From Muribaculaceae bacterium (GTDB lineage: Bacteria > Bacteroidota > Bacteroidia > Bacteroidales > Muribaculaceae): a DNA stretch of 41,568 bases. The position numbers were made by a program, and so were the translations under genes. The stretch spans positions 1-41,568 of the forward strand of contig JAIDPA010000182.1 of NCBI GenBank assembly GCA_029062985.1, in the 5' to 3' direction. The notes under the pieces are model-generated. The model did no database searches. It saw only the letters and a program-made list of their open reading frames with translations, and was not told where the DNA came from. Below are positions 20,690 to 24,243 of the stretch, in pieces; within the stretch, counting starts at the first letter, position 1, and the number at the start of each line of letters is the position of its first letter.

Positions 20690-23125
20690 TTATCTGATAT
20701 TGGCAATGCTGATTATGTCGGCAAAGACTCCGGCAGCCGTAACCTCAGCCCCTGCTCCGTATCCCTTAATTACCATAGGATATTCCTTATAGCGTTCGGT
20801 CGTCAGAAGGATTACGTTGTTGCTCCCGGCGAGATTATAGAAAGGATGGTCAGCCCCTACCCGGCGCAGACCGACACTGACTTTGCCGTTGTCAAGGGAT
20901 GCCACAAAACGGAAATGCTCTCCTGCAGCTTCAGCCTCAGCTCTCTGGCGTTCGTATTCCTCGTCATGACGCTTGATATTGCCGATAAAGTCGGCAGCTT
21001 CTCCCTCAAACAGTTCATCGGGAACAAACAGATTTTTCTCTACATCTTCCTGATCAATCTTATATCCTGCCTCACGTGCAAGAATCACGAGTTTGCGGAT
21101 TACGTCTTTTCCTGAAAGGTCGATGCGCGGGTCAGGCTCGGCATATCCTGCCTCTTTTGCCATTTCTATTGCGCGGCTCATAGGAATTTCTGAAGAGAGA
21201 ACGTTGAAGATATAATTGAGAGTGCCTGACACGACAGCCTCTATCTTCAGAATCTTGTCGCCTGAGTTTATAAGAGAGTTGATCGTATTAATGATGGGGA
21301 GACCGGCGCCTACATTGGTTTCGAAAAGATATTTCACGTCTTTTCTGCGAGCCATTTCCTTAAGCGCCAGATAATCGGCATAGTCGGAAGAGGCAGCGAT
21401 TTTATTGGCAGCCACGACATTGACATTATGGGAGAGAAGGTCAAGATAAAGGGCAGCAATATCGGCAGAGGCGGTACAATCGACAAATACGGAGTTGAAG
21501 ATATTCATTTTGAGCACTTCGTCGCGTATTATCTCCGGAGATGCGTCGATACCTTCGCGCTCGAGCAGCGAGCGGCAGTCAGTGATGTCTATTCCGTCGC
21601 GGTTGAAAATTGCTTTTTTGCTTGAAGCGACCCCCACGACGTTCAGCCTCAGATTTTTCTCTTTCAAAAGATTTTCCTGCTGCTTGCGAATCTGTTTCAG
21701 AAGACTGTCTCCGACGTTTCCTATACCCACAAGGAACACGTTGAGCACCTGCGTGTCGCTCAGGAAGAATGAATCATGAATTACGTTGAGGGCTTTCCGG
21801 AGACTTTTCTTTTCAATCACGAATGAGATGTTGGTCTCTGATGCGCCTTGCGCACAAGCAATGACGTTTATACCGTTTCTGCCTACGGTATTGAAGAGTT
21901 TGCCGGCAAGTCCGGTGGTGTGTTTCATATTTTCACCCACGACGGCTACGGTAGCCAGGTCACGCTCAGCCTTGACTTCGTTGAATGTGCCGGAAGCGAG
22001 TTCGGCAGCAAATTCTTCCTGAAGGGTGTGCACAGCAAGATCAGCGTCAGCATTTCTGACTGCGATAGTGGTATTGTTCTCACTGGCTGCCTGCGACACT
22101 AAGAAGACACTTACACCTTTCTTTGTCAGAGCGTTGAAAATGCGTGAATTGACACCGATGACACCCACCATGCAAGGGCTGCTGATTGTGACCAGACAGG
22201 TATCATTTATAGAGGAGATACCCTTTATCGCCTTTCCATTGTGGCGTGTTTCATTGGTGATTCTGGTGCCGGGAGCGGAGGGGTTGAAAGTATTTTTGAC
22301 CCAGATGGGTATATTTTTATGATATACAGGATAGATTGTCGGAGGATAGATCACCTTTGCGCCGAAGTTGCAAAGCTCCATGGCTTCGATGAACGTGAGT
22401 TCGTCAATGACGTAGGCATTATCGATGACGCGAGGATCAGCCGTCATGAAACCGTCGACATCAGTCCAGATTTCAAGAGCATCCGCATCCAGGGCGGCAG
22501 CCATAATTGCAGCGGTGTAGTCGCTTCCTCCTCTTCCAAGATTTGTCACTTCTCCTTTAGTGTCGGAAGCAATAAAACCGCCCATGACAGCCGTAGTCCA
22601 GTCGTATGCACAGACTTTCTCTTGTATCAGGCTGTTTGTGAGGGCAGAATCAAGTTCGCGAGAACCGTGTGGCCCCTCCTTGGTGCGTATGAAGGTTCGT
22701 GAGTCAAAGTGGGTGGCACCCTTAATCATATTTGCGACAATCACACTTGAGAGTCTCTCACCGTAGCTTACAATAATGTCAAGCGCACGTTGAGACAGAT
22801 CGTGAAGGAGCATGACTCCTTTGTAGATATTTCCAAGTTCGTCAAGCATCATCTTCACCAGCGCATAGGTGGCGTCTCGTTTGGAAGGGGGTATGACGCC
22901 ATCGACGACAGCGACGTGCCGTTCGACAATACGGGCGTAATTATCAAGATATGCGATATCATCAGCCACAGCAAGCCGTGCAGTGGCTATCAGGAGGTCA
23001 GTGATTCCGCCGAGGGCAGAAACGACAACCACTTTTTTACCGGGAGTCTCCTCCACAATTTTACGGACATTGGAAAGGCTTTCGACAGTTCCGACTGAAG
23101 TGCCTCCAAACTTTAAAACCTTCAT
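20690..23125 (-). CDS. thrA: Bifunctional aspartate kinase / homoserine dehydrogenase I
   Basis: 811 aa. N-terminal kinase (MKVLKFGGTSVG at 1; about 1-290), two ACT-like regulatory repeats (about 305-460, with VGVIGVNSRIFNALTKKGVSVFLVSQ and VAVVGENMKHTTGLAGKLF), and homoserine dehydrogenase from about 465 (VFLVGIGNVGDSLL dinucleotide site, KAGYAEPDPRIDLSGKDVIRKLVIL-type catalytic region). It carries out the first and third steps of aspartate-family synthesis and is usually inhibited by threonine through the ACT domains. It is the first gene of the operon; a -7-like TATGTTTG lies at 23230-23237. No leader peptide rich in Thr or Ile was seen. Confidence 0.95.
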   Translation of the reverse strand: MKVLKFGGTSVGTVESLSNVRKIVEETPGKKVVVVSALGGITDLLIATARLAVADDIAYLDNYARIVERHVAVVDGVIPPSKRDATYALVKMMLDELGNIYKGVMLLHDLSQRALDIIVSYGERLSSVIVANMIKGATHFDSRTFIRTKEGPHGSRELDSALTNSLIQEKVCAYDWTTAVMGGFIASDTKGEVTNLGRGGSDYTAAIMAAALDADALEIWTDVDGFMTADPRVIDNAYVIDELTFIEAMELCNFGAKVIYPPTIYPVYHKNIPIWVKNTFNPSAPGTRITNETRHNGKAIKGISSINDTCLVTISSPCMVGVIGVNSRIFNALTKKGVSVFLVSQAASENNTTIAVRNADADLAVHTLQEEFAAELASGTFNEVKAERDLATVAVVGENMKHTTGLAGKLFNTVGRNGINVIACAQGASETNISFVIEKKSLRKALNVIHDSFFLSDTQVLNVFLVGIGNVGDSLLKQIRKQQENLLKEKNLRLNVVGVASSKKAIFNRDGIDITDCRSLLEREGIDASPEIIRDEVLKMNIFNSVFVDCTASADIAALYLDLLSHNVNVVAANKIAASSDYADYLALKEMARRKDVKYLFETNVGAGLPIINTINSLINSGDKILKIEAVVSGTLNYIFNVLSSEIPMSRAIEMAKEAGYAEPDPRIDLSGKDVIRKLVILAREAGYKIDQEDVEKNLFVPDELFEGEAADFIGNIKRHDEEYERQRAEAEAAGEHFRFVASLDNGKVSVGLRRVGADHPFYNLAGSNNVILLTTERYKEYPMVIKGYGAGAEVTAAGVFADIISIANIR

Positions 23126-23229
23126 ATATGAAAAAGTAGATTAAAGATTTGACAGGTGTTGGAATTAGTTCACCAAAAAGCAGAACGCTGAGAAATAATT
23201 GCCAAAATTAGCGATTTTTATTGAGAGCA

Positions 23230-23237
23230 CAAACATA
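23230..23237 (-). promoter_or_regulatory. Candidate -7 box of the thr operon
   Basis: TATGTTTG on the minus strand fits TAnnTTTG and lies 105 bp before thrA. No matching TTTG -33 box at the normal spacing was found, so the call is tentative. Confidence 0.4.
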
Positions 23238-23405: not shown

Positions 23406-23437
23406 TTTGGAAATAAAATAAAGAAGTAGTAATTTTG
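23406..23437 (+). promoter_or_regulatory. Consensus promoter of an orphan RNA
   Basis: TTTG at 23406-23409, a 20-nt spacer and TAATTTTG at 23430-23437 match the Bacteroidetes consensus exactly. It fires away from thrA into a stretch with no convincing protein-coding gene that ends in a strong terminator. Confidence 0.8.
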
Positions 23438-23440
23438 CAA

Positions 23441-23680
23441 TGTCAAAACAGGACATTGAGTGGCAAAATGTAGTTATAATGAGGTTTTCAACTCCTGTTT
23501 TGATTACAAATGTATGAGTACAAAATCGCAATAAGCAGTATAAATATATTTGTAGGCATTATTCTTATTAGTCGGGAACTGACTTATGGATAATTAGGTG
23601 TAAATTTAAATTAGGGAACTGATAAATATCAATTAAAGCGTGATTAGTGCCTCGTCGGGAGACGAGGCACTAATATTTTT
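23441..23680 (+). ncRNA. Predicted orphan non-coding RNA, about 240 nt
   Basis: The interval between a full consensus promoter and a 13-bp terminator stem has no credible reading frame: the best, ATG 23440, gives 25 codons and would be leaderless. The 5' end can form two mutually exclusive hairpins: CAATGTC/GACATTG (23438-23444 with 23452-23458) or the 11-bp TCAAAACAGGA/TCCTGTTTTGA (23443-23453 with 23493-23503). GGGAACTGA occurs twice exactly 40 nt apart (23574, 23614). It lacks the closing helix expected of 6S RNA and I do not recognise RNase P, tmRNA or SRP RNA features. The function is unknown; a trans-acting regulatory RNA is the simplest reading. Confidence 0.65.
23644..23680 (+). terminator. 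Rho-independent terminator of the orphan RNA
   Basis: ttagtgcctcgtc (23644-23656), loop ggga, gacgaggcactaa (23661-23673) form a perfect 13-bp stem followed by tattttt. The T-run is only on the plus strand, which fixes the direction. Confidence 0.9.
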
Positions 23681-23717
23681 GCCCCTCCGGGAATATGACA
23701 ATCTTACTCACTGCCAA

Positions 23718-23751
23718 TAAAAAATCGACGGAGCTATCACAACCCCGTCGA
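23718..23751 (-). terminator. Minus-strand terminator with no obvious gene upstream
   Basis: On the minus strand tcgacgg pairs with ccgtcga around a 13-nt loop (arms 23745-23751 and 23725-23731) and is followed by a run of Ts. It would end transcripts entering from thyA or from the unassigned 23844-24050 segment. Confidence 0.75.
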
Positions 23752-23843
23752 ATCATCATTATAACATTCATTTAACTACCTGTTTCGATTAATTATTCTT
23801 TGATTTCATAAGCTCAACCTATAGGTTACTTCATAAGCTAAAC

Positions 23844-23912
23844 CTATTTGGTACGAGGAAAAGCATAAGCACCCTCATACCATTCAACTCTCGCTTCTGA
23901 AAATTGAATCAT
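23844..23912 (-). CDS. Possible 22-aa micro-ORF or remnant
   Basis: Reads MIQFSEARVEWYEGAYAFPR and two more residues, then TAG, with an ordinary protein-like composition. The same frame is open upstream to an ATG at 24050 except for one TGA at 23979-23981, so this could be the end of a decayed 68-codon gene. Immediately after the stop, AGGTT(T/G)AGCTTATGAA is repeated with a 25-bp period (about 23805-23846). I do not recognise the peptide. A terminator follows about 90 nt downstream, so the stretch may instead be an RNA. Confidence 0.25.
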   Translation of the reverse strand: MIQFSEARVEWYEGAYAFPRTK

Positions 23913-24146: not shown

Positions 24147-24243
24147 TTTTGATTCACAAAAGTTCACTTCCGGTATGATATTTCTTAAACTGTTTATTAA
24201 TAGCGAATTATACGACTGAAGCGTGAACTTTTGTGAATCAAAA
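24147..24243. repeat. 21-bp perfect inverted repeat flanking 55 bp
   Basis: TTTTGATTCACAAAAGTTCAC (24147-24167; 20 of these bases also form the core of neighbouring partial copies) is exactly complementary to 24223-24243. The 55-bp centre has no promoter box. Partial copies (agtgaatt, agttttgtgaag) follow to 24270, and a separate dyad gaagataa/ttatcttc lies at 24267-24283. It could be a MITE-like relic, an operator array or a recombination site. Confidence 0.7.

What the first reader, a model, noticed from the sequence alone, without database searches (positions are those of the whole stretch)
23406..23680. Orphan ~240-nt RNA gene with its own promoter and terminator in the thrA-thyA spacer
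The sequence directly shows an exact Bacteroidetes promoter (TTTG, 20 nt, TAATTTTG) and, 207 bp on, a 13-bp terminator stem with T-run on the same strand, while the interval lacks a credible protein. I recognise no standard housekeeping RNA. This is the strongest candidate for an undescribed element in the window.
Basis: partly seen in the sequence, partly recalled or inferred. Interest (0 to 1): 0.72.

Follow-up and report, generated by a model that had tools for sequence, protein, structure and literature searches.

The report
Undescribed small RNA, LacI-linked in relatives
A stretch with no evident protein in a gut bacterium's genome looks like a real, previously undescribed small RNA gene, and in many relatives a neighbouring sugar-type regulator seems to have its only good DNA docking site in front of it.

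Summary
Window 23406-23680 (+) carries an exact Bacteroidetes promoter (5 in the window, 0.35 expected), a 14-bp terminator hairpin, one copy in its genome and no Rfam match. Homologues occur in 25 of 111 same-genus draft genomes; none credible in 397 family and 393 order genomes outside the genus (weak hits partly read). All 25 have TTG-20/21-TAnnTTTG. The shared part is 3': a nearly invariant 18-mer (<=1 mismatch in 22 of 25), a small hairpin, and a terminator stem with 67 doubly changed cells against 20 in shuffles. The 5' half varies.

A 32-bp operator-like element starts 86-88 bp before the -7 box in those 14 and one more, not in the other 10. At <=1 mismatch it is unique to this locus in 14 of 16 genomes searched. 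The window has neither LacI nor element.

Most likely a new regulatory sRNA family, ancestrally LacI-controlled. No target was found; expression is untested.

The parts
23406..23409 (+). -33 promoter element TTTG
   Evidence: A TTG lies 20 (23 loci) or 21 (2 loci) nt before the -7 box in 25 of 25 homologous loci.
23430..23437 (+). -7 promoter element TAATTTTG; 5' end of the RNA inferred near 23441-23445
   Evidence: Start site inferred from the known promoter layout, not measured. A second TAnnTTTG box 43 nt before the 18-mer was not chosen.
23442..23504 (+). 5' hairpin of the variable 5' domain
   Evidence: MFE fold. Sequence not conserved; its pairs are not in the RNAalifold consensus of this locus with its three nearest relatives.
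23505..23554 (+). second hairpin of the 5' domain (UUACAAAUGUA...UAUAUUUGUAG)
   Evidence: Kept in that four-sequence consensus, with almost no variation to test it.
23588..23605 (+). nearly invariant 18-mer GGATAATTAGGTGTAAAT, centre of the conserved core
   Evidence: 22 of 111 genus genomes at <=1 mismatch carry it in the RNA context; 0 hits for the backwards control. Diverged copies in G100, G075, G067.
23611..23622 (+). short hairpin UUAG-GGAA-CUGA with GNRA loop (GUAA in three relatives; absent in G100)
   Evidence: 98.8% of cells paired, but three of its four pairs never vary, so they do not test the pairing.
23643..23681 (+). terminator hairpin (14 bp, GGGA loop) and T-run; 3' end near 23680
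   Evidence: In the whole structure 67 cells with changes on both sides against 20.1 in shuffles (0 of 500 as high); the changes lie in this stem, at 10 of its 13 pairs.
23580..23680 (+). conserved 3' core as matched by covariance model R1
   Evidence: 100.3 bits, E = 1.3e-17. R1 was built from this and 20 other loci, so this score is by construction.
23203..23233 (-). divergent promoter-like site (TTTG-N19-TAATTTTG), presumably of thrA
   Evidence: The thrA ORF starts at 23125 on the minus strand.
   Evidence: Left neighbour in some relatives, topA-like or other genes in others.
   Evidence: A homologue lies near the RNA in most homologous loci.

Best explanation
This is a free-standing small regulatory RNA gene of about 240 nt, single copy, found only in one genus (Muribaculaceae by the titles of matching public records). 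The shared functional part is the last ~95 nt: an exposed 18-mer, a small GNRA hairpin, a short linker and the terminator hairpin. The 5' part is a variable leader. In the ancestral arrangement a divergent LacI-family regulator binds a paired CGNTT operator about 83 bp upstream of the start and controls the RNA, probably as an activator. Since that is its only good operator in the genome, the metabolic signal would be passed on through the RNA alone. The exposed 18-mer most likely base-pairs with mRNAs. In the window's lineage LacI and operator have been lost and the RNA runs from its bare promoter. Shown here (by sequence): the RNA family, promoter, terminator, element position, element uniqueness and its absence here. 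Inferred: transcription, LacI binding, activation rather than repression, direction of change (loss), sugar or polyol as the signal, and action by base-pairing.
For: Conservation in 25 of 111 genus genomes. The 18-mer is kept at <=1 mismatch in 22 of them while LacI proteins from different loci share as little as about 36% identity. Covariation in the terminator stem: 67 doubly changed cells against 20.1 shuffled and 9-24 in slid controls, covariation score 0.531 against 0.134. Promoter TTG-20/21-TAnnTTTG in 25 of 25. Element scoring 21-31 of 32, starting -86 to -88 from the -7 box, in 15 of 25 loci; best score 16-19 in the other 10. Its distance to the lacI start is not fixed (77 to 392 bp; 14 in one locus if a longer lacI ORF is used), so it is tied to the RNA promoter. 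At <=1 mismatch it occurs only at this locus in each of 14 of 16 genomes searched; the 8 sites elsewhere with 2 mismatches are fewer than the 24 control hits. LacI domains confirmed in the four proteins scanned. Of 34 RNA-lacking genus genomes searched, 2 have a LacI match at E<=1e-40.
Against: No transcript evidence. No target found: complements of the 18-mer with <=3 mismatches in 23 genomes number about 68 beyond the RNA loci against 57 for the backwards control, and start regions from parts of two genomes show no excess pairing. Pairing with lacI, thyA or thrA starts is weak. The count of stem pairs with double changes (10) is itself not above shuffles (60 of 500 as high). The terminator apex GTCG-TGA-GAC also occurs on ordinary terminators of the family. 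In six loci two -7 boxes were possible and I chose one; in L041 the element helped me choose. The RNA was not found in 86 of 111 genus drafts, so it is dispensable. A 27-aa frame exists in the window.
Confidence: 0.7

Rival explanations
1. The RNA acts by binding a protein (sponge, scaffold or 6S-like regulator), not by base-pairing. The 18-mer and GNRA hairpin are the binding site.
For: Eighteen nearly invariant consecutive bases with an adjacent GNRA hairpin, and no target complementarity above control.
Against: No long 6S-type closing stem in the folds and no Rfam match. Protein-binding motifs were not searched for.
Confidence: 0.2
2. It encodes a small protein, and the conserved core is its 3' untranslated region.
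For: Frames of 10-47 aa run into the 18-mer in 9 of 25 loci, 27 aa in the window (MYEYKIAISSIN..., ATG at 23510); G123 has a similar 19-aa frame at the same place.
Against: In 16 of 25 loci the longest frame over the 18-mer is 8 aa or less. The printed peptides differ between lineages (the 24-aa one is shared by three near-identical loci); two of the window's three nearest relatives lack its frame. Conservation is at base level through the AU-rich core. Frames that end before the 18-mer were examined only in the window and its nearest relatives.
Confidence: 0.05
3. It is a cis-acting element: a leader, attenuator or terminator serving thrA or thyA rather than a separate gene.
For: It often lies between thrA and thyA; in G075 it sits upstream of and on the same strand as thrA.
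Against: thrA in the window is divergent and thyA convergent. Neighbours vary: carB-like, a glycoside-hydrolase-like gene, topA-like, fabF-like (names by inspection). The RNA ends at its own terminator.
Confidence: 0.05
4. In the window's own lineage the gene is a decaying relic, since regulator and element are gone.
For: LacI and element absent here; altered cores in G075 and G067, which also lack both.
Against: The window's 18-mer, terminator and promoter are intact, as in seven of the nine other loci without the element.
Confidence: 0.1

Closest known systems
GibS and FopS sRNAs of Bacteroides thetaiotaomicron (PMC7366714, PMC11697453; passages read)
   Same: Intergenic sRNAs of the same order with exposed conserved seeds; FopS has a Rho-independent terminator and the canonical promoter type. 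Linked to carbohydrate use.
   Different: Their conserved seed is in the 5' part, FopS is a 14-copy family of ~65-70 nt, and GibS uses another promoter motif. Here the conserved part is at the 3' end, single copy, with a variable leader and a LacI gene beside it in many relatives. The FopS paper says its structure was deposited in Rfam; whether the release used holds it was not checked, and no Rfam family matched.
SgrR-SgrS of enteric bacteria (PMC4098024, passages; divergent gene order recalled)
   Same: A dedicated, metabolite-linked transcription factor activates a small RNA.
   Different: SgrR is not a LacI-family protein (recalled); sequences were not compared. Here regulator and operator seem to be lost while the RNA stays.
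LacI-family regulators beside polyol or hexuronate genes in other genera of the family (for example G167)
   Same: 47% identity, and a similar element AAAACGTTTGCAGATTTTGGAAACGTT upstream.
   Different: There the divergent gene is a mannitol-dehydrogenase-family enzyme (PF01232); in our loci it is the RNA, and R1 finds no RNA in L108-L119.

Membership tests
Independently transcribed intergenic sRNA | Own promoter and Rho-independent terminator, no conserved ORF | tested here: met
   promoter kept in 25 of 25 loci; no frame over the 18-mer shared across lineages.
Independently transcribed intergenic sRNA | Transcript of discrete size observed | not testable with these tools
   No RNA-seq or Northern data at hand.
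Base-pairing (trans-acting) sRNA | Conserved complementarity to target mRNAs | tested here: inconclusive
   No excess over control; the start-region test used parts of two genomes.
Any Rfam 15 family | Score at or above the family's gathering score | tested here: not met
   on the window; on seven relatives (only a cobalamin riboswitch elsewhere in L032 passed).
LacI-controlled transcription unit | Operator-like element at a fixed place relative to the promoter | tested here: not met
   Not met in the window itself (L030: best score 19 of 32). Met in 15 of 25 homologous loci, at -86 to -88.
LacI-controlled transcription unit | Binding and regulation shown | not testable with these tools
   Needs EMSA or a mutant.
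FopS/GibS family | Shared R1 seed and family alignment | not tested
   Seed letters were not in the passages read; only the Rfam scan bears on it.

The most novel reading that the evidence does not exclude
A LacI-family sensor whose whole regulon is one operator in front of one RNA, so that a sugar-type signal is relayed entirely by a small RNA. In several lineages the sensor first lost most of its ligand-binding domain and then vanished with its operator, leaving the RNA core unchanged: a regulatory RNA that outlives and escapes its transcription factor.
Probability: 0.5. Interest if true: 0.7.

Novelty: new variant of a known kind. Interest (0 to 1): 0.55.

Why it matters
Muribaculaceae are abundant in the mouse gut (recalled), and the capped listings of my two searches on their small RNAs (32 titles shown) named none. 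This gives a candidate with defined ends, a predicted regulator, a predicted operator and two isolates to test it in, one with LacI and one without (record titles). It also offers a natural series (full LacI, shortened LacI, no LacI) for asking how an RNA survives the loss of its transcription factor.

Tried and rejected
Rfam on the window and seven relatives: nothing for this RNA. Weak R1 hits: of 20 weak rows, 13 were read. Nine share only the terminator apex; L089, L090 and L095 share another sequence; L094 shows neither. The 7 unread rows (G165:C73, G018, G219, G087:C13, G410, G301, G414) and, G001 and G026 were dropped on E-value alone. G076 was read and lacks the 18-mer.

Targets: the 18-mer's complements in 23 genomes, about 68 beyond the RNA loci against 57 for the control, summed by hand. 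Duplex energies on 954 start regions of G004 and 625 of G062, 146 reciprocal best pairs: best combined score -3.7 against -4.6 +/- 0.9 for 60 shuffled seeds; best single site -17.6 in G004 (shuffled minima -15.7 +/- 1.3) and -14.9 in G062 (-15.2 +/- 1.1): negative. Pairing with lacI starts (11 of 14 loci; 3 starts not found; mean z -0.6), with the window's thrA (z -0.7), thyA (z -2.0) and thyA 3' end (0.3); thyA across 14 loci mean z -0.4, the window's own then -0.8: not significant.

Six loci (L027, L030, L036, L038, L041, L043) have two TAnnTTTG boxes within 260 nt. In L041 I first took the box at 18 nt and replaced it with the one at 215 nt because that fits the element, so L041 is not independent support for the spacing. 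A long-range pairing of the leader's CGCU with AGCG appears in RNAalifold of two of four subgroups; not pursued. A second hairpin AACUGA/UCAGUU was set aside because many members have a C-A mismatch.

The Fisher test (14 of 25 against 2 of 34, p = 4e-5) compares reading of the locus with a whole-genome search at E<=1e-40, which the shortened copies would probably miss, and ignores relatedness: descriptive only. Only 34 of 86 RNA-lacking genomes were searched for LacI. The thyA tree covers 16 of 25 loci, is midpoint-rooted, and labels G105 'none' although its contig ends 0.4 kb upstream; short and absent LacI are not cleanly nested.

Phages and plasmids: no match. Two viral contigs hold the 18-mer without the core.

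Full report
What was claimed and what is there. TTTG is at 23406-23409 and TAATTTTG at 23430-23437; such promoters are rare by chance (5 in the window, mean 0.35 in shuffles). The terminator hairpin is 14 bp at 23643-23674, followed by ATTTTTG. The region folds far better than shuffles (z -6.9). Rfam has nothing. The promoter matches the published consensus, TAnnTTTG at -7 and TTTG near -33 (PMC7366714, passages). The longest frame reaching the 18-mer is 27 aa.

It is a conserved RNA. In its own genome the only second hit is the hairpin's own reverse complement. A search of 60 relatives plus the own genome showed that the 3' part is conserved, next to thyA in four of the first loci read. The 18-mer GGATAATTAGGTGTAAAT occurs with at most 1 mismatch in 22 of 111 genus genomes, with no hit for the reversed control; one extra hit in G023 (L044) is not the RNA. 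A covariance model from 21 loci adds three diverged members, G075, G067 and G100: 25 of 111. In 397 family genomes, 17 match at E <= 2e-7, all of the same genus; of 20 weaker rows I read 13 and none has the 18-mer. In 393 order genomes only the window's own matches at E <= 0.001. A scan of GTDB contigs for the exact 18-mer found 27 stretches, 20 with the core by my reading, all titled Muribaculaceae, Porphyromonadaceae or Bacteroides sp..

Anatomy. The core is the 18-mer, a short A/T stretch, UUAG-GNRA-CUGA, a linker that in most members ends in AAAGCG, and the terminator. In the stem, 67 cells have changes on both sides against 20.1 in shuffles (0 of 500 as high) and 9-24 in slid controls. 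The number of pairs with such a change (10 of 13 in the stem) is not above shuffles (60 of 500). The inner hairpin hardly varies and is not tested. The stem's apex is shared with ordinary terminators of the family. The 5' part (about 37-209 nt by predicted starts) varies between lineages. Single folds often put a hairpin near the predicted 5' end, but alignment of close relatives does not support it by covariation.

The promoter. In all 25 loci a TTG lies 20 nt (23 loci) or 21 nt (2 loci) before the TAnnTTTG box I assigned, although box and 18-mer are 49 to 221 nt apart. In six loci a second box was possible.

The regulator. A divergent LacI-family gene lies next to the RNA in 14 loci. Ten are full length (340-361 aa). 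Four are shortened (three of 197-207 aa; the G016 copy is an open frame of similar length). Three of the short ones align to the N-terminal ~155-180 residues of full copies and weakly to a C-terminal piece, with ~100 residues missing between; two of them keep the LacI helix-turn-helix but match only the first part of the sugar-binding profiles. In 10 loci no LacI was found at the locus; in G105 the contig ends too soon to tell. A 32-bp element with two CGNTT half-sites starts 86-88 bp before the -7 box in all 14 LacI loci and in G023, whose neighbour is a different gene, WYL-like by my reading. The other 10 loci have no comparable site. Its distance to lacI varies (77-392 bp, or 14 in L031 by its longer ORF). 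With at most one mismatch it occurs only at this locus in each of 14 of 16 genomes; the other two, G100 (diverged element) and G099 (no RNA), had no hit; 8 sites elsewhere with 2 mismatches compare with 24 control hits. The pattern was drawn from these loci, so their matching it is by construction; the uniqueness is not. LacI is thus predicted to control this RNA, perhaps itself, and little else.

Co-occurrence and loss. Of 34 RNA-lacking genus genomes searched (of 86), 2 carry a LacI match, G099 and G032 (the latter beside a transporter-like gene), and neither has the RNA there. The window's genome has no LacI match at 1e-10, but it is 86% complete. On a thyA tree of 16 loci, nine with short or no LacI group together at 99/99 and the six full-length ones lie outside; G023 suggests a separate loss; the root is midpoint only and several forks are open. 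The nearest LacI elsewhere (47%, genus g31) sits beside a mannitol-dehydrogenase-family gene with a similar element; some more distant ones sit beside sorbitol/xylitol-dehydrogenase-like genes by my reading. That is the only basis for guessing a polyol or hexuronate signal.

How it probably works. I infer that LacI, on its ligand, activates the RNA from about -83; that position suits activation better than repression, but it is not proof. The exposed 18-mer would then act on mRNAs. I looked for targets and found none. The start-region scan used about half of G004 and under a quarter of G062, so it has little power. A protein-binding role remains open.

What is known. GibS and FopS are the nearest described sRNAs that I found (PMC7366714, PMC11697453, passages). 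They differ in the place of the seed, copy number and neighbourhood. SgrR-SgrS is nearest in logic (PMC4098024, passages). A search for LacI, sRNA, 'divergently transcribed' and Bacteroid- together found 0 papers; the capped listings, seen as titles and abstract starts, show no LacI-sRNA pair or Muribaculaceae sRNA. The library lacks most subscription papers.

Verdict. It stays a prediction until a transcript and a target are shown.

Noticed in passing
window 24147-24243: Perfect 21-bp inverted repeat with 55 nt between its arms, in the ~660-bp stretch between the RNA and thyA; no other copy found in its genome. In several relatives the gap from core to thyA is far shorter.
   Followed up: partly
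window 23725-23751 (-): Terminator-like hairpin followed by TTTTTTATTG on the minus strand, about 590 bp downstream of thyA; which transcript it ends is unclear.
   Followed up: no
window 23805-23854: Two tandem 25-bp copies, 84% alike, TTCATAAGCT.AACCTAT.
   Followed up: no
L089, L090, L095 (genomes G376, G165, G255, genus g28); also L264 (G076): Weak R1 hits. The first three share a different conserved sequence, AAAATGTGTTTTATGTTAGTTATGTAATTGTTTTAA..AATTAAAACGCAGC, before a terminator; G076 shares only AATTAAAACGCAG. Possibly another RNA or 3'-end family.
   Followed up: no
L091, L092, L093, L096, L097, L098, L099, L100, L101: Terminators elsewhere in this family share the apex GTCGTGAG or GTCGTGATGAC (GNRA-type loop). 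In the window itself the motif GTCGNGAGAY occurs twice, not above chance.
   Followed up: partly
L032 1873-2086 (+): Cobalamin riboswitch (Rfam, 94.9 bits) between the RNA and thrA in G022, where LacI lies in other lineages.
   Followed up: no
L102 2636-3168 (G099): Upstream of a LacI relative without the RNA lie many GC-rich repeats of the type CAAGGAAAGCGGTCCTCCCGGCC.
   Followed up: no
L053 (G106), between the RNA and thyA: A 787-aa gene that looks like a lipoprotein glycoside hydrolase (family 3 by inspection) sits beside the RNA and a shortened LacI.
   Followed up: no
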